Shown: piece after piece, positions 46,282-53,323 of the stretch
Position numbering within the stretch: the stretch's first letter is position 1
How the letters are laid out: the number at the start of each line of letters is the position of its first letter
Origin: Armatimonadota bacterium
GTDB lineage: Bacteria; Armatimonadota; Chthonomonadetes; Chthonomonadales; Chthonomonadaceae
DNA length: 55,288 nucleotides
Direction: 5' to 3'
Assembly: GCA_028871815.1 (NCBI GenBank)
Contig: JAGWMJ010000015.1
Coordinates: forward strand, 1 to 55,288
Program-made: the position numbers and the translations under genes
The notes under the pieces: model-generated
The model's input: only the letters and a program-made list of their open reading frames with translations
Database searches by the model: none
Told to the model about the DNA's origin: nothing

Positions 46282-47355
46282 ATGCTGGACGTCAATCAAC
46301 GGCCGTTGATGGCCTATTGGGAAGTTACGCGCGCCTGTGAGCTCTCGTGCCGGCACTGCCGCGCAGAGGCCAATCCGAGCCGACACCCGAACGAACTTAC
46401 CATGGACGAAGGGATCAAGCTGCTGGATGACATGACCGGCTTCGGATCACCGCTGCCACACCTGGTCTTCACCGGGGGCGACCCGCTCAACCGTCCCGAC
46501 CTCTGGGACCTTATCGAGGCGGCACGATCTCGAGGATTCATAACCGCGATAACGCCGAGTGGTACGCCGAAGTTGAACGCAGGCATCGTGAAACAGTTTG
46601 CTACCGCCGGCATCTGGATGATGGCCTTGAGCATCGATGGATCATGCGCTGCTCGGCACGATGGGATTCGGATGATCGACGGCAGCTTCGCGCGGACGGT
46701 TGATGCTGCGGGCTGGGCGCGCGCTGCCGGACTGCCGCTTCAGGTGAACACCCTGATCTGCGAGCAGACGGCCGACGACCTGCCGTCGATCTACCGGCTG
46801 ATCCAGAATCTCGGCGCGGCGCGATGGAGCCTGTTCTTCCTCATCCAGGTTGGACGGGGCAAGGCGCTTGCTGAAGTTACGCCGGAGCGCAGCGAACAGA
46901 TCATGGAATGGGTGCTGGCACGGGCGGATGAGGGCCGGATGGATATTAAAACCACCGAGGCGCCGCACTACCGGCGTATGGCTCTGCAGCACCGAGAGGA
47001 CTCCGGCGACGAACCCGTGCGGAGCGTAAGAAACGGATTCGGCATCCGCGATGGAAGCGGAATCCTCTTTGTATCTCACACGGGAGATGTCTATCCCGCT
47101 GGATTCCTTCCAGTCAATTCTGGTAATGTGCGAGATGGAAACATCGTGGAGATCTACCGGAACTCGCGCACGTTCCGCCAACTGCGCGATCCCGCCCTTC
47201 TGAAGGGCAAATGCGGCCGGTGCGAATATCGCCGCATCTGTGGCGGCAGCCGCGCGCGGGCTTACGCGCATACCGGTGACATGCTGCAAAGTGACCCTCT
47301 GTGCCCCTATCAGCCGCAGCGCATCCATGCATCACAACCCATAATGGTCGGCTAG
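46282..47355 (+). CDS. AhbD-like radical SAM/SPASM protein, candidate coproheme decarboxylase
   Basis: 357 residues. The radical SAM cluster motif is C-x3-C-x2-C (Cys19, 23, 26, in ACELSCRHCRAEA), followed by FTGGDPLNRPD (GGE-like) and LSIDG. The C-terminal SPASM-type tail has KGKCGRCEYRRICGG and DPLCPY, closely resembling the tail of AhbD heme synthases (and TIGR04053 proteins). AhbD decarboxylates Fe-coproporphyrin III to heme. It opens an operon with hemE, hemY and hemH, whose product by the coproporphyrin route is exactly that substrate, and no ChdC/HemQ gene is in the window. Function is therefore a strong inference, not proof; a peptide-modifying SPASM enzyme is the alternative. AGGAG nine bases before the ATG. 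Confidence 0.8.
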   Translation: MLDVNQRPLMAYWEVTRACELSCRHCRAEANPSRHPNELTMDEGIKLLDDMTGFGSPLPHLVFTGGDPLNRPDLWDLIEAARSRGFITAITPSGTPKLNAGIVKQFATAGIWMMALSIDGSCAARHDGIRMIDGSFARTVDAAGWARAAGLPLQVNTLICEQTADDLPSIYRLIQNLGAARWSLFFLIQVGRGKALAEVTPERSEQIMEWVLARADEGRMDIKTTEAPHYRRMALQHREDSGDEPVRSVRNGFGIRDGSGILFVSHTGDVYPAGFLPVNSGNVRDGNIVEIYRNSRTFRQLRDPALLKGKCGRCEYRRICGGSRARAYAHTGDMLQSDPLCPYQPQRIHASQPIMVG

Positions 47356-47397
47356 CCATCCGAGGCGTGCGCTCGCCGGTCGCAGAATACCGATCTA

Positions 47398-48429
47398 TTG
47401 ACCCTCTTTAACAACAGGCTGCTTGCTGCGTGCGCGGGCCAGCCGACAGATTGTACGCCGATCTGGCTGATGCGCCAGGCTGGCCGCTACCAGCCCGAGT
47501 ACCGGGCACTTCGTGAGAAGTACACGATGATGGAGTTGTGTACCACGCCCGAGCTGGCCGCAGAGGTTACCCTTGCGCCGCTGAGGCGCTTCGATCTGGA
47601 TGCCGCGATCCTGTTCTCGGATCTGACGCTCCCATTTACGCCCATGGGCGCGCCATTCCAGCTCAAGGAAGGGCAGGGGCCCGTGGTTGAGACGCCGATC
47701 CGCACGCCCGCCGATGTCAATCGCCTGCGCTGCATTCAGCCGGACCAGGACCTTGCGTTTGCGCTGGAAACCATCCGCCTGCTTCGTCCGGCGCTCAACG
47801 TGCCGTTGGTTGGTTTCACCGGCGCTCCGTTTACCATGGCGGCCTACCTGATTGAAGGCAGCGGTGTCCGCGACTGTCCGACAACACGGGCATTCATGCT
47901 GGCCGAGCCTGGCGCATGGCACGCTCTCATGGAGGTGCTGGTCGAGAACGCCGCCCGGTACCTCGAAGCCCAGGTGCAGGCGGGAGTACAAGCCGTGCAG
48001 TTATTCGACAGCTGGGTTGGCGCGCTATCGCCGGATACCTACCGGTCATACCTGCTGCCCCACATGCAGCGCCTCTTCCAGCGCCTCAAGCTATGCCGGA
48101 TACCGGTGATCCATTTTGGCACGGGCACGGCGACACTACTCGAGGTTATGCGCGAGGCGGGCGGCGATGTGATCTCGGTCGACTGGCGGATTCCGCTCGA
48201 TGATGCATGGAGGCGGATCGGCGCCGATCGCGCCATCCAGGGGAATCTCGATCCTGTTGCCTTGCTGGCGCCACGCGAAGTCCTGCTGGATCAAACGCGA
48301 CTGGTTCTGAAGCGGGCGGCCGGCAGGCCAGGCCACATCTTCAACCTGGGACACGGGCTGCTGCCTGCCACACCCATCGAGAGCGTACAGTTACTCGTGG
48401 ATACCGTTCATGAGGAGAGTGCCGCATGA
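47398..48429 (+). CDS. hemE: Uroporphyrinogen decarboxylase
   Basis: 343 residues, the family length. Decarboxylates uroporphyrinogen III to coproporphyrinogen III. The N-terminal signature PIWLMRQAGRYQPEYR and the second signature region GFTGAPFTMAAYLIEG are present, as are LFSDLTLPF and FNLGHGLLP. The TTG start has no clear ribosome site; it lies 42 bases after the radical SAM gene. The stop overlaps the hemY ATG (ATGA). Confidence 0.96.
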   Translation: MTLFNNRLLAACAGQPTDCTPIWLMRQAGRYQPEYRALREKYTMMELCTTPELAAEVTLAPLRRFDLDAAILFSDLTLPFTPMGAPFQLKEGQGPVVETPIRTPADVNRLRCIQPDQDLAFALETIRLLRPALNVPLVGFTGAPFTMAAYLIEGSGVRDCPTTRAFMLAEPGAWHALMEVLVENAARYLEAQVQAGVQAVQLFDSWVGALSPDTYRSYLLPHMQRLFQRLKLCRIPVIHFGTGTATLLEVMREAGGDVISVDWRIPLDDAWRRIGADRAIQGNLDPVALLAPREVLLDQTRLVLKRAAGRPGHIFNLGHGLLPATPIESVQLLVDTVHEESAA

Positions 48430-49868
48430 GCGCGCGGCACGTACTGATCGTAGGCGGTGGCATAACGGGCATGGCCGCTGCCTTTTACCTTGAGCGCGCG
48501 GCTGCCGATCGCGGCGTGCCGATCGCGATTACGCTTGTGGAGGCAAGCGATCGGCTGGGCGGCAAGCTCGGCACGCTGCAGCACGACGGGATGCTGATCG
48601 ATATTGGGCCCGACTCGTTCACGGCGCACAAACCCGCGGCTGCGGCGCTCTGCCGGGAGTTGGGCATGGAAGCTGACCTGGTATCGCCCATTGCGACGCG
48701 ATTCTCGCTGCTCTTCGGCAACAGGCTCTATCCGGTTCCACACGAGCTGGTTTCGCTTGCGCCTTCGCGTCCGGAGGCTATTTTGAAGGCGGGCTTCCTG
48801 TCCGTGGCGGGAAAGGCACGCGCTCTAGCCGAGGGCGCTATTCCGGCTCGCGGCGATGTTGAGGATGAGTCACTCGGCTCGTTCATGCGCCGGCGTTTTG
48901 GCGACGAGTTTGCCGTGCGTTTTGTCGAGCCACTGCTGGGTGGCGTGCACGCCGGCGATCCGGAGAAGATGAGCATGGCAGCCATCTACCCATCGTTTTG
49001 GCAGATGGAGAAGGAGTTTGGCAGCATCTCCCGCGCGCTGCTTTCCCGGCGGTTGAGCCGATCGGGCACGGTAGAGACCTCGCCAAGGTCACCATTTGTT
49101 GCCCTTCGGGGCGGCATGCAGAGCCTTGTCGACCGTCTCCGGGAGCGTTTGAGTGAAACGCAAATCGTGGAACGGGCCACGCTCTGTGGGCTCGGCGTGG
49201 AACCTGGTGGCCGCTATGCATGCAGGCTCTCCACCGGTGAGTCGCTCTGCGCAGATGCCGTGATTCTGGCGGTGCCCGCAGCGGTGTCCGCGCCGCTGGT
49301 CGCGCCGCTTTCCAGAAACGCCGCCGACCTGTTATCCGGCATCCAATACGCCTCCACGGCGGTGGTCAGCCTTGCCTGGCGTACCGAACACCTCCCGAGG
49401 CCGCTCGACGGCTCCGGTTTCCTCGTCCCGCGCAGCCAACAGACAGCGATCACCGGCTGCACGTTCACCAGCAGCAAGTGGCCGGACCGGTGTTCGGCAG
49501 GTACCACACTCGTACGTGCTTTTGCCGGCTCTGACGGCCCTGGCGAAACGATCACGGATCTCAGCGACGACGACCTGGTGATGGCCGTCCGCAGGGATCT
49601 GTCGACGATACTGGGTATCGGCGCGGATCCTACGTTCTGCCGTGTTAACCGCTGGCCGCAGGCGATGCCGCAATATACGGTCGGGCATTTGAAGCGGGTC
49701 GAGGCGATCGAGTTGGCGCTCGCCCGGTTTCCGGGGCTCATCCTCGCGGGCTCGTCGTACCGCGGCGCCGGCATACCCGACTGTATACGCCAGGCGGCTG
49801 ACGCCGCGGCTGCCGCGTTGCGTGCCTGCAGCGAGCCTGCCCGTGCACGGGCAGGCACATCGGCATAG
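48426..49868 (+). CDS. hemY: Coproporphyrinogen/protoporphyrinogen III oxidase, HemY type
   Basis: 480 residues, FAD-dependent. N-terminal dinucleotide-binding VLIVGGGITGMAAAFYLE, then EASDRLGGKLGT and IDIGPDSFTAHKP; the C-terminal half has WPQAMPQYTVGH and GLILAGSSYRGAGIPDCIRQ, the family FAD-binding end. Oxidises coproporphyrinogen III to coproporphyrin III in the coproporphyrin-dependent route (CgoX), or protoporphyrinogen IX in the classical route. Absence of hemF/hemN in the operon and the HemH type favour the former. Confidence 0.93.
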   Translation: MSARHVLIVGGGITGMAAAFYLERAAADRGVPIAITLVEASDRLGGKLGTLQHDGMLIDIGPDSFTAHKPAAAALCRELGMEADLVSPIATRFSLLFGNRLYPVPHELVSLAPSRPEAILKAGFLSVAGKARALAEGAIPARGDVEDESLGSFMRRRFGDEFAVRFVEPLLGGVHAGDPEKMSMAAIYPSFWQMEKEFGSISRALLSRRLSRSGTVETSPRSPFVALRGGMQSLVDRLRERLSETQIVERATLCGLGVEPGGRYACRLSTGESLCADAVILAVPAAVSAPLVAPLSRNAADLLSGIQYASTAVVSLAWRTEHLPRPLDGSGFLVPRSQQTAITGCTFTSSKWPDRCSAGTTLVRAFAGSDGPGETITDLSDDDLVMAVRRDLSTILGIGADPTFCRVNRWPQAMPQYTVGHLKRVEAIELALARFPGLILAGSSYRGAGIPDCIRQAADAAAAALRACSEPARARAGTSA

Positions 49869-49885
49869 GTCTGGGAGAAAACGAA

Positions 49886-50896
49886 TTGAGTTATGACGCG
49901 CTGTTGTTCGTCTCGTTCGGCGGACCGGAAGGGCCGGCCGATGTGATGCCGTTCCTGCGGAACGTGGTTCGTGGAAGGAATGTTCCCGAGGAGCGCCTGC
50001 TCGAGGTGGCGGCGCACTATGGCCGTTTTGGCGGATGCAGCCCGATCAACCAGCAAAATCGCGACCTGATCGCTGCTCTGACGCGCGAGATGCAGCGCTA
50101 CGGAATGAATATGCCCATCTACTGGGGCAACCGCAACTGGAAGCCGTACGTTACCGACGCGGTTGCGCAGATGAAGTCGGATGGCATTCACCGCGCCATG
50201 GCGTTCGTCACCTCGGCATTCAGTTCATACTCGGGATGTCGCCAATACCTCGATAATATCAGCGACGCCGTGGCGCAGGCTGGGCATGGCGGCCCGCAAA
50301 TCGATAAGCTGCGCGTGTTCTACAACCATCCGTTGTTTATCCGTGCTGTCAGCGAGAATGTGGAGGCCGCACTGCAGCGCTTGCCCGCCTCGGTACGGTC
50401 CGGCGCACAGGTCCTCTATACCGCGCACAGCATTCCGATTTCGATGGCCGAAGGCTGCGACTATGCGCGCCAACTTCACGAGTCGTGCAGGTTGGTCTCC
50501 GAAGCTCTTGGGCGCACCGGGGATCGACTGGCATACCAGAGTCGCAGCGGCCCTCCGTCGCAGCCGTGGTTGGAGCCGGATGTTCTCGCAGCACTTCGCG
50601 ATGTCAAGAGCAGCAACACGTTTCAGAGCGTTGTAATTGCGCCAATTGGATTCGTTTCCGACCATATTGAGGTCCTGTTTGACCTGGATGTAGAGGCGCG
50701 ATCAGAATGTGACGAACTACAGCTTCCAATGGAACGCGCGGCGACGGTGAGCACCAATCCGAAGTTTGTCAGGATGATCCGCGAGTTGATCCAGGAGCGC
50801 ATGGAAGGTGTCCAGGCAAGGGCGACTCTGGGCGCATTCGGACCGGGTCCCGATCACTGCCTGCCGGATTGCTGTCCGGCGCCTCGGCGACCGTAA
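49886..50896 (+). CDS. hemH: Ferrochelatase (coproporphyrin type, with likely [2Fe-2S] cluster)
   Basis: 336 residues. Inserts Fe(II) into the porphyrin. Opening YDALLFVSFGGPEGPADVMPF and GGCSPINQQNR resemble actinobacterial coproporphyrin ferrochelatases (CpfC). Active-site His lies in YTAHSIP and the metal-binding Glu in FVSDHIEVLFDLD. Cys118 in SSYSGCRQY and three Cys at the C-terminus (CLPDCC) match the ligand positions of [2Fe-2S]-containing ferrochelatases. TTG start with GGGAG eight bases upstream, 17 bases after hemY. Confidence 0.94.
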   Translation: MSYDALLFVSFGGPEGPADVMPFLRNVVRGRNVPEERLLEVAAHYGRFGGCSPINQQNRDLIAALTREMQRYGMNMPIYWGNRNWKPYVTDAVAQMKSDGIHRAMAFVTSAFSSYSGCRQYLDNISDAVAQAGHGGPQIDKLRVFYNHPLFIRAVSENVEAALQRLPASVRSGAQVLYTAHSIPISMAEGCDYARQLHESCRLVSEALGRTGDRLAYQSRSGPPSQPWLEPDVLAALRDVKSSNTFQSVVIAPIGFVSDHIEVLFDLDVEARSECDELQLPMERAATVSTNPKFVRMIRELIQERMEGVQARATLGAFGPGPDHCLPDCCPAPRRP

Positions 50897-50943: not shown

Positions 50944-50949
50944 TATAAT
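50944..50949 (+). promoter_or_regulatory. -10 box upstream of the beta-propeller gene
   Basis: A perfect TATAAT 112 bases before ATG 51062, with no good -35. The last three bases overlap an upstream ATG (50948), so that ATG cannot be the start if the promoter is real. CTGCAGCGC occurs as a direct repeat on both sides (50918 and 50952). Confidence 0.45.
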
Positions 50950-51061
50950 GCCTGCAGCGCCGCACAACTCCCCAGCCCCCGCTGCGCACGTTGATCCGAT
51001 CGTCAATTGCCCGGTTCGACGCCCGTCATGCAGCCTGCGTTTGCAGGTAGGGGGTATCGCG

Positions 51062-52402
51062 ATGAGATTCCTGCGCTTTTTGTTTGCGGCCGCTTTCGGC
51101 CTCTCCCTTTCCCTCTCAGCCGCTGCCCAGCTGAATCTCGCCTGGCGGCATACCTTCAGCTGGAACAACCTGAAGGAAGATGCCGCACAAGCGACGGCGT
51201 GGACCCCGCAGGGCGATCTCTACGTGGTGGGCTTTCACTATCCCCGCGACGGCGTGTACCTCCAGGTGATCAAGTACAACGCTGCGGGCGCCTACCAGTG
51301 GCGGCGCAGCTTCCCATCGCTGGCGTTTCTCACAGCCGGCCAATATCCGCAAATTGGAGTGGATAGCGCCGGCAACCTCATCGTTGCCGCTCAAAACCTC
51401 AACTCCTCCAGCACCTGGATGACGGTGCGCAAGTTCGCTCCAAACGGCGCCATACTCTGGAGCGATAACGTGTTTGGGCCACATGGCTACGTAGTTCCAG
51501 CCCAACTGGTGGTCGATTCGAAGGATAACGTCTATGTCGCCGCGACCGGTCTCGCCGGCCAACAGTCGAACTACACGTACAACGCCATTACCATCAAATA
51601 CAACGCGAGCGGTGTACGGCAGTGGTCGGCGGCCTATGATGGACCGCACGTGAACGCATCGGTCAACGGCATGGCCGTGGACTCGAACGGAAACGTGTTC
51701 GACCTGGTAACGGTGCTGAATGCACCCGACCCGGTGCGCATTGTCTCGTATTCGGCCTCGGGAGGTCGGATAGGCGTGACGGCGATCCATACCGGATCTG
51801 CAAGCCAGTTTTACGCCGGCCAGGCGATAGTCGCATCGGCGAACCGACTCCTGGTGCTGCTGGACAACAGTAATGCACCGGTTACCTCGGCGCTGGTCAG
51901 TTACACGATTGTGCCTGCCACCCCGGTCCTGCCGGTAAGGCTTAACGAGCAGTGGGTGAGCCACACGTCGAACCGGCTCTTCGGCCTGGCCGTGGATCGG
52001 GCAGGCGATGCTGCTGCCGCGGGTGTGGACAGCAGTGGTACGAATGCGAGCGCACTGGAGTGGGACAGCGCGGGCAAACAGATCTGGCGCCATAGCTTGG
52101 CCCTTACGCGAGGCGGCGGATACTGGAATTCCGTTGCGGTAACGCCATCCGGCGAAGTACTCTTGGTAGGAAGCGAGTATGCAACCACCACGCAGCAGGG
52201 CATCATCTTGATCATTGTGGCCGTATACTCGAGCAGTGGCGCACTCCTCGGCCATGCGATAGCATCTCAAGGGTCCGCATACCAGGCGGCGCACGGTTCG
52301 CTCTCGCCGGATGGCACGCGCCTCGCCGTTGTGGGACAGGAAGAGATTGCGGGCACTCCACTGATCGACCTCGCAGTGACGATGGCCTTCAACCTGTTTT
52401 GA
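51062..52402 (+). CDS. Secreted beta-propeller-like protein
   Basis: 446 residues from ATG 51062, with AGGGGG upstream; the frame extends to 50948, but that part is outside any homology and overlaps the promoter. Signal peptide MRFLRFLFAAAFGLSLSLSA ends at AAAQ. The mature protein is built of repeats of the type VDSAGNLIVAA, VDSKDNVYVAA, VDSNGNVFDL and VDRAGDAAAAG, each followed by a KYNASG or EWDSAGK turn, as in SBBP/NHL or PQQ-like beta-propellers; about six to seven blades. Function unknown, probably extracellular or periplasmic. Its first ~45 residues are shared with the next gene. Confidence 0.75.
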   Translation: MRFLRFLFAAAFGLSLSLSAAAQLNLAWRHTFSWNNLKEDAAQATAWTPQGDLYVVGFHYPRDGVYLQVIKYNAAGAYQWRRSFPSLAFLTAGQYPQIGVDSAGNLIVAAQNLNSSSTWMTVRKFAPNGAILWSDNVFGPHGYVVPAQLVVDSKDNVYVAATGLAGQQSNYTYNAITIKYNASGVRQWSAAYDGPHVNASVNGMAVDSNGNVFDLVTVLNAPDPVRIVSYSASGGRIGVTAIHTGSASQFYAGQAIVASANRLLVLLDNSNAPVTSALVSYTIVPATPVLPVRLNEQWVSHTSNRLFGLAVDRAGDAAAAGVDSSGTNASALEWDSAGKQIWRHSLALTRGGGYWNSVAVTPSGEVLLVGSEYATTTQQGIILIIVAVYSSSGALLGHAIASQGSAYQAAHGSLSPDGTRLAVVGQEEIAGTPLIDLAVTMAFNLF

Positions 52403-52453
52403 TCCGTCGCCGCAGTCACACGGCTTACTGTCCGGTTGGAGCGTAATACAATC

Positions 52454-53323
52454 ATGAGAACAGCACGCTGGTTGCTCATGGCCGCCGCCGGTCTCACCCT
52501 GACCGTCTGCGCAACCGCGCAACTGAACCTCGCCTGGCAGCGGACGTATAGCTGGAACCACACCGAGGTGGACGGAGCACAGGCGGGGCCGAGACCAGCT
52601 CCAGCGGTTCAGGCCAGGATCGACCGAGACGTAAGAGCAATCCACGACGCTTGTAACAACTGGTCCGGGCCTCACGGTCTCGCTCCACGCCCGCACAAAG
52701 AAATTGACAAGGCGGTCCCGCGTAGTGAGGCAGTTTGGCTCCTGCGCGCGGCTAGAGGCTACCCGTGGTGGCGGCACGTCGGCCGCGCTGTGAGCTTTAT
52801 TGGCGCATTCTATGGCATCGATCGCGCACGGTACACCAACCACCTAGCGTCGATATGCCTCTACTTCGGAAGTCACCGCTCACCGAAGGACCTGCGTAAT
52901 CCTGCGCTGCGGTGGGAGCCGCGGGGCTACGATTGGGCGCTTCCAGCCATGAGTGCCGAGGGCTACCTGATCAACCTCTACTGGTGGCAGCGCGATCGGG
53001 CCGCGCTCGCTGCGGCGTTTCGGTACTGGTGGAGCGGCGGTCCGTCCGAGGGGCGGCTCAATGATATCTACGACGCCTGGCGTTACGCGCGGTCCGATAT
53101 GCTGCGATGCGCCGCGACGGACTACGGCGTAGCCCGTGTGCTCGCCGACGGGTTCTATTCCGGCGGCCCGAACAACGAGGAGGCGGTGCTGCCGGCGCCG
53201 ACGCGTACGCTAAGGATTCTGAGACGCATGGGACGTCGGCACACGGTGGTCGGCCGTGGCGCGCGTGCTGTAGCCGCAGCTCTCGCGCATGAGCTGCACG
53301 TGTACGGCCCTCCGACCTGGTAG
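52454..53323 (+). CDS. Chimeric secreted protein: propeller N-terminus joined to an unknown domain
   Basis: 289 residues from ATG 52454. Residues 1-45 parallel the preceding gene: a signal peptide, then AQLNLAWQRTYSWN against AQLNLAWRHTFSWN and DGAQA against DAAQA. After that, similarity stops abruptly. The remainder (about 46-289) is an unrecognised, Trp/Arg/Tyr-rich sequence (RAARGYPWWRHVG, LINLYWWQRDRAALAA, AWRYARSDMLRC). It lies just before an RHS fragment, so the new C-terminal part may be an effector tip or immunity gene captured behind the propeller gene's secretion signal. Function unknown. Confidence 0.55.
   Translation: MRTARWLLMAAAGLTLTVCATAQLNLAWQRTYSWNHTEVDGAQAGPRPAPAVQARIDRDVRAIHDACNNWSGPHGLAPRPHKEIDKAVPRSEAVWLLRAARGYPWWRHVGRAVSFIGAFYGIDRARYTNHLASICLYFGSHRSPKDLRNPALRWEPRGYDWALPAMSAEGYLINLYWWQRDRAALAAAFRYWWSGGPSEGRLNDIYDAWRYARSDMLRCAATDYGVARVLADGFYSGGPNNEEAVLPAPTRTLRILRRMGRRHTVVGRGARAVAAALAHELHVYGPPTW

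What the first reader, a model, noticed from the sequence alone, without database searches (positions are those of the whole stretch)
46282..50896. Hybrid heme pathway: AhbD-like radical SAM enzyme in place of ChdC/HemQ
The operon encodes uroporphyrinogen decarboxylase, HemY-type oxidase and a CpfC-like ferrochelatase. In the coproporphyrin-dependent route these yield coproheme, which ChdC normally decarboxylates. No chdC is present. The first gene instead encodes a radical SAM/SPASM protein whose Cys pattern and C-terminus resemble AhbD, which decarboxylates coproheme in the siroheme route of archaea and sulfate reducers. The likely reading is a mosaic of two known pathways with a radical SAM last step.
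Basis: partly seen in the sequence, partly recalled or inferred. Interest (0 to 1): 0.75.

Follow-up and report, generated by a model that had tools for sequence, protein, structure and literature searches.

The report
AhbD-type heme enzyme alongside ChdC
The operon is real, but it does not replace the usual last enzyme of heme synthesis: the genome has that enzyme (ChdC) elsewhere, and the radical SAM protein most likely does the same step without oxygen, a two-enzyme arrangement already known from other microbes.

Summary
The gene calls are right. Window 46282-50896 holds, on one strand, a radical SAM/SPASM gene, hemE, hemY and cpfC, tightly packed; this is the genome's only ferrochelatase. 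Its nearest solved structures are coproheme decarboxylases, and it is 67-76% identical to chdC of 12 genomes of the same family, often beside queG, so contamination is unlikely. hemF, hemN and ahbA/B were not found; the route is the coproporphyrin pathway plus an accessory enzyme.

The radical SAM protein passes the TIGR04053 cut-off (460 vs 395 bits) and fails the AhbD one (304 vs 500). TIGR04053 is one supported clade that groups with AhbD, away from AhbC/NirJ and PqqE/MftC, and contains the haloarchaeal AhbD type. In Haloferax volcanii ahbD is needed only without oxygen, chdC with oxygen. Closest relatives carry chdC directly before the gene; 43 of 48 TIGR04053 genomes have chdC. Best reading: an oxygen-independent backup coproheme decarboxylase. 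Reviews already describe this arrangement. New member of a known kind.

The parts
46282..47355 (+). Radical SAM/SPASM protein, TIGR04053 family (AhbD-type; predicted oxygen-independent coproheme decarboxylase), 357 aa
   Evidence: TIGR04053 460 bits (cut-off 395); TIGR04545 AhbD 304 bits (cut-off 500); tree; Cys pattern with radical SAM cluster and AuxII motif only
47398..48429 (+). hemE, uroporphyrinogen decarboxylase, 343 aa (TTG start as listed; start codon not tested)
   Evidence: TIGR01464 405 bits, cut-off 303
48426..49868 (+). hemY/cgoX-type coproporphyrinogen/protoporphyrinogen oxidase, 480 aa
   Evidence: TIGR00562 316 bits, cut-off 98; overlaps hemE by 4 bp
49886..50896 (+). hemH/cpfC ferrochelatase, 336 aa; the only ferrochelatase found in the genome
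   Evidence: NF000689 433 bits, cut-off 408; single PF00762 match in the genome

Best explanation
This is a coproporphyrin-dependent heme operon with an accessory last-step enzyme. HemE makes coproporphyrinogen III, HemY oxidises it to coproporphyrin III, CpfC inserts iron to give coproheme. Coproheme is then decarboxylated at two propionates to heme b by either of two unrelated enzymes: ChdC, encoded on another contig, which uses peroxide; or the TIGR04053 radical SAM protein, which uses S-adenosylmethionine and iron-sulfur clusters and needs no oxygen. The radical SAM protein is therefore most likely an AhbD-type isozyme for low-oxygen conditions, working beside ChdC and not in its place. 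Shown here: the gene content, the presence of chdC, the absence (to the searches used) of hemF, hemN and ahbA/B, the family placement, and the recurrent linkage to heme genes. Inferred: the substrate, the reaction and the oxygen-dependent division of labour.
For: chdC present, single copy, E=3.5e-54; nearest solved structures are coproheme decarboxylases; Tyr130 and His153 keep the Tyr-His spacing of 23 residues expected from C. diphtheriae Tyr135/His158 (Tyr135 is named in PDB 7q4g's title; His158 from my own knowledge); 67-76% identical to ChdC of 12 same-family genomes, beside queG in 7. No hemF; the only HemN_C protein is HemW, 296 bits, cut-off 205; no AhbA/B; no AhbC or second AhbD-type protein above 80 bits. 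Nearest relatives (66-69% identity) have the order chdC - TIGR04053 - hemL - hemE - hemY - cpfC. In 201 genomes of the phylum TIGR04053 over cut-off occurs in 33 and chdC in 31 of those 33 (Fisher p=3.7e-18, not corrected for relatedness). In 48 genomes across bacteria and haloarchaea that carry it, 43 have chdC, 5 have AhbA/B. Haloferax relatives are 50-53% identical, score 498-502 bits for TIGR04053 and sit beside a halocyanin gene, as HVO_2144 ahbD does; its deletion abolishes only anaerobic growth, rescued by heme (PMC5746218; PMC8305020).
Against: No assay exists for this protein or, per PMC10452713, for any AhbD with only the AuxII cluster. In several relatives TIGR04053 sits beside an AhbC-type gene or beside nirS in Thermus, so a siroheme-side or heme d1-related role is possible in those lineages. 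The genome also has a heme-copper oxidase and no clear anaerobic terminal reductase was established, so need for an anaerobic enzyme is not shown here.
Confidence: 0.8

Rival explanations
1. The radical SAM protein is the sole or main coproheme decarboxylase and has replaced ChdC; the chdC-like gene is something else, for example a peroxidase.
For: The gene leads the operon with the other pathway enzymes, while chdC is unlinked. Five of 48 TIGR04053 genomes have no PF06778 match, three of them (L113, L117, L118) with a linked hemE or cpfC.
Against: The chdC product groups with coproheme decarboxylases of known structure and keeps the key Tyr/His pair; it is conserved in all 13 family genomes sampled, most of which lack TIGR04053.
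Confidence: 0.06
2. The protein acts in another tetrapyrrole route (siroheme-dependent heme, heme d1 or a modified heme), and its place in this operon is incidental.
For: Relatives in the same family sit beside AhbC-type genes; Thermus plasmid copy sits beside nirS.
Against: This genome has no AhbA/B and no AhbC/NirJ-type protein above 80 bits, so no siroheme-branch substrate would be made; the direct relatives are embedded in hemL-hemE-hemY-cpfC with chdC.
Confidence: 0.08
3. It is a peptide-modifying SPASM enzyme unrelated to heme.
For: SPASM architecture; nearest solved structure by sequence is PqqE.
Against: PqqE and MftC lie outside the clade of TIGR04053, AhbD, NirJ2, AhbC and NirJ; PqqE scores 122 bits against 304 for AhbD and 460 for TIGR04053; no precursor peptide gene was seen, though none was searched for systematically; linkage to heme genes in several phyla.
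Confidence: 0.02

Closest known systems
Haloarchaeal AhbD (Haloferax volcanii HVO_2144), used with ChdC (PitA)
   Same: Same TIGR04053 clade (Haloferax members 50-53% identical, 498-502 bits); same Cys pattern with Glu226 and Ser323 in place of AuxI cysteines; chdC in the same genome (PMC5746218, PMC8305020).
   Different: Haloarchaea make coproheme from siroheme with AhbA/B/C and lack hemE, hemY and cpfC (PMC5746218); here coproheme comes from hemE-hemY-cpfC.
Canonical AhbD (TIGR04545; Methanosarcina barkeri, Desulfovibrio)
   Same: Radical SAM motif and C-terminal CX2CX5CX20C motif; sister clade in the tree.
   Different: Window protein fails the TIGR04545 cut-off and lacks the AuxI cysteines.
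Coproporphyrin-dependent pathway with linked ahbD (hemY/hemH/hemQ + ahbD)
   Same: Reported as gene co-localisation in PMC10548856 (citing Bali 2011, Dailey 2015); PMC7242693 and PMC12670364 name AhbD as alternative to ChdC in this pathway.
   Different: In the window chdC is unlinked; otherwise the same arrangement.

Membership tests
TIGR04053 radical SAM/SPASM family | Score over curated cut-off 395 bits | tested here: met
   460.3 bits
TIGR04053 radical SAM/SPASM family | Falls inside the TIGR04053 clade | tested here: met
   29 rows on one side of a branch, support 100/100; window nested with 66-69% identical relatives
AhbD (TIGR04545 equivalog, EC 1.3.98.6) | Score over curated cut-off 500 bits | tested here: not met
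   303.9 bits; haloarchaeal members of the same clade also fail it at 333-343 bits
AhbD (TIGR04545 equivalog, EC 1.3.98.6) | CX3CX2C and C-terminal CX2CX5CX20-38C (AuxII), present in all AhbD sequences studied in PMC10452713 | tested here: met
   C19/C23/C26 and C311/C314/C320/C341
AhbD (TIGR04545 equivalog, EC 1.3.98.6) | AuxI cysteines (only in the methanogen and sulfate-reducer subset) | tested here: not met
   Aligned positions are E226, A273, S323; matches the Glu/Ser substitutions described for AhbDs of non-methanogenic archaea (PMC10452713)
AhbD (TIGR04545 equivalog, EC 1.3.98.6) | Converts coproheme to heme b with SAM, anaerobically | not testable with these tools
   Needs an enzyme assay
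Coproporphyrin-dependent heme pathway | hemE, hemY and cpfC present; hemF and hemN absent | tested here: met
Coproporphyrin-dependent heme pathway | chdC present | tested here: met
   G000:C19:15650-16219 (-)
Siroheme-dependent (Ahb) heme pathway | ahbA/B and ahbC present | tested here: not met
   No PF17805 match; no AhbC-type radical SAM protein above 80 bits with the TIGR04053 profile

The most novel reading that the evidence does not exclude
Probability: 0.3. Interest if true: 0.45.

Novelty: new member of a known kind. Interest (0 to 1): 0.22.

Why it matters
It corrects a tempting pathway call: absence of chdC from an operon is not absence from the genome. The positive part gives a named target for an open question: PMC10452713 states that no AhbD with only the AuxII cluster has been studied biochemically, and PMC10965808 notes that the oxygen-independent partner of ChdC in bacteria of the coproporphyrin route is unknown (there for Bacillaceae). 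TIGR04053 genes sitting directly beside chdC are good candidates to test outside that group.

Tried and rejected
Looked for a chdC remnant in the window, including upstream of the radical SAM gene: none, best E 0.12. Considered that the chdC on C19 is contamination: rejected, since it is 67-76% identical to same-family ChdCs and shares queG synteny. Considered HemN as an alternative: the only HemN_C protein is HemW. Considered the Ahb route: no AhbA/B. Dailey 2015 and the 2017 review are not held, so the prior reports are cited through later reviews. Hits to molybdopterin enzymes gave no clear anaerobic respiratory reductase. No structure was predicted: it would not discriminate between the rivals.

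Full report
What is there. Window 46282-50896 holds four same-strand genes: radical SAM/SPASM (46282-47355), hemE (47398-48429), hemY (48426-49868) and cpfC (49886-50896), with gaps of 42 bp, -4 bp and 17 bp. Family scores confirm hemE, hemY and ferrochelatase, and the ferrochelatase is the only one found in the genome. The window lies in a 3.68 Mb, 22-contig genome, 98% complete. Its sampled relatives are deposited as Armatimonadetes/Chthonomonas, so the phylum is very probably Armatimonadota.

A search of the own genome for the Chlor_dismutase/ChdC family gives one strong match on contig C19 (E=3.5e-54). The best solved-structure matches are coproheme decarboxylases (E=3.6e-25), ahead of true chlorite dismutases (E=1.3e-14 and weaker). 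The alignment keeps the YPFV..WY..L block that holds the Tyr named in the Y135A structure 7q4g, and a His 23 residues on (Tyr130, His153). The protein is 67-76% identical to the ChdC of 12 other genomes of the same taxonomic family, with queG alongside in seven of these stretches. It is therefore native, and the statement 'in place of ChdC' does not hold. hemF is absent, the one HemN_C protein is HemW, and AhbA/B are absent. The pathway is the coproporphyrin one.

What the radical SAM protein is. It scores 460 bits for TIGR04053 (cut-off 395), 304 for AhbD TIGR04545 (cut-off 500), 194 for NirJ2, 160 for NirJ, 145 for AhbC and 122 for PqqE. In a maximum-likelihood tree of 42 proteins TIGR04053 forms one group (100/100). 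It joins AhbD (branch 88/78, so the sister relation is only moderately supported), then NirJ2, apart from AhbC/NirJ and from PqqE/MftC. It keeps the radical SAM and AuxII cysteines in 29 of 29 members; the AuxI positions carry Glu226, Ser/Ala273 and Ser323. That is the Glu and two Ser pattern described for AhbDs of non-methanogenic archaea (PMC10452713). Haloferax members of the clade score about 500 bits for TIGR04053 and sit beside a halocyanin gene, with a multicopper oxidase and a cytochrome oxidase-type subunit I gene nearby. This matches the described neighbourhood of H. volcanii ahbD, so I infer that HVO_2144 belongs to this clade; its own sequence was not inspected.

What its relatives do with it. 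The closest relatives (66-69% identity) have chdC directly upstream, then the radical SAM gene, hemL, hemE, hemY and, where the contig goes far enough, usually cpfC. Several Chloroflexota loci share the chdC-TIGR04053 pair; other Armatimonadota, Chloroflexota and one actinobacterial locus cluster it with the same genes in other orders. A third set sits beside an AhbC-type gene. Across 201 genomes of the phylum, 31 of 33 with TIGR04053 over cut-off also have chdC; the two without have the AhbC-type neighbour. Fisher p is 3.7e-18 but relatedness was not corrected for. Across 48 genomes from the wider collection, 43 have chdC and only five have AhbA/B.

How it most likely works. Coproheme made by HemE, HemY and CpfC is finished to heme b by ChdC when oxygen or peroxide is available, and by the radical SAM enzyme when not. 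In H. volcanii, deletion of ahbD hits only anaerobic growth and deletion of the chdC-type gene pitA only aerobic growth, each rescued by heme (PMC5746218). The transfer of that result to this organism is inference. I did not establish that the organism lives without oxygen; it has a heme-copper oxidase.

Known or new. PMC10548856 states that ahbD is co-localised with hemY/hemH/hemQ or with ahbA/B/C; PMC7242693 and PMC12670364 name AhbD as an alternative to ChdC in the coproporphyrin pathway; PMC8305020 notes AhbD plus ChdC in most haloarchaea. The window is a further member of this kind. What remains open is biochemical: no AuxII-only AhbD has been assayed (PMC10452713), and a few chdC-less genomes in this set may be real mosaics, subject to unknown assembly completeness.

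Noticed in passing
window 49886-50896: CpfC ends in HCLPDCC and has an internal Cys118, which could be a [2Fe-2S] site. It is only about 30-32% identical to CpfC of the operons whose radical SAM and HemE are 63-69% identical to the window's, so this operon may be assembled from different sources.
   Followed up: partly
window 50948-53323: ORFs 50948-52402 and 52436-53323 start with similar signal-peptide regions (AAAQLNLAWRHTFSWNN / ATAQLNLAWQRTYSWNH); the second then runs into unrelated sequence, which looks like a partial duplication.
   Followed up: no
L181 (G000:C18:26131-27714): Formate dehydrogenase-N-like gene with one in-frame TGA, probably a selenocysteine enzyme.
   Followed up: partly
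L171 6989-8116: Thermus thermophilus plasmid copy of TIGR04053 lies directly after nirS and before a cytochrome c-552 gene, which fits a role under denitrifying conditions.
   Followed up: no
L113, L117, L118: TIGR04053 with linked hemE and/or cpfC and hemY in genomes without any PF06778 match and without AhbA/B: candidates for a real ChdC replacement.
   Followed up: partly
L084 5552-9054: An Armatimonadota locus carries an AhbC-type gene, a near-AhbD gene and a TIGR04053 gene in tandem, in a genome that also has chdC.
   Followed up: no
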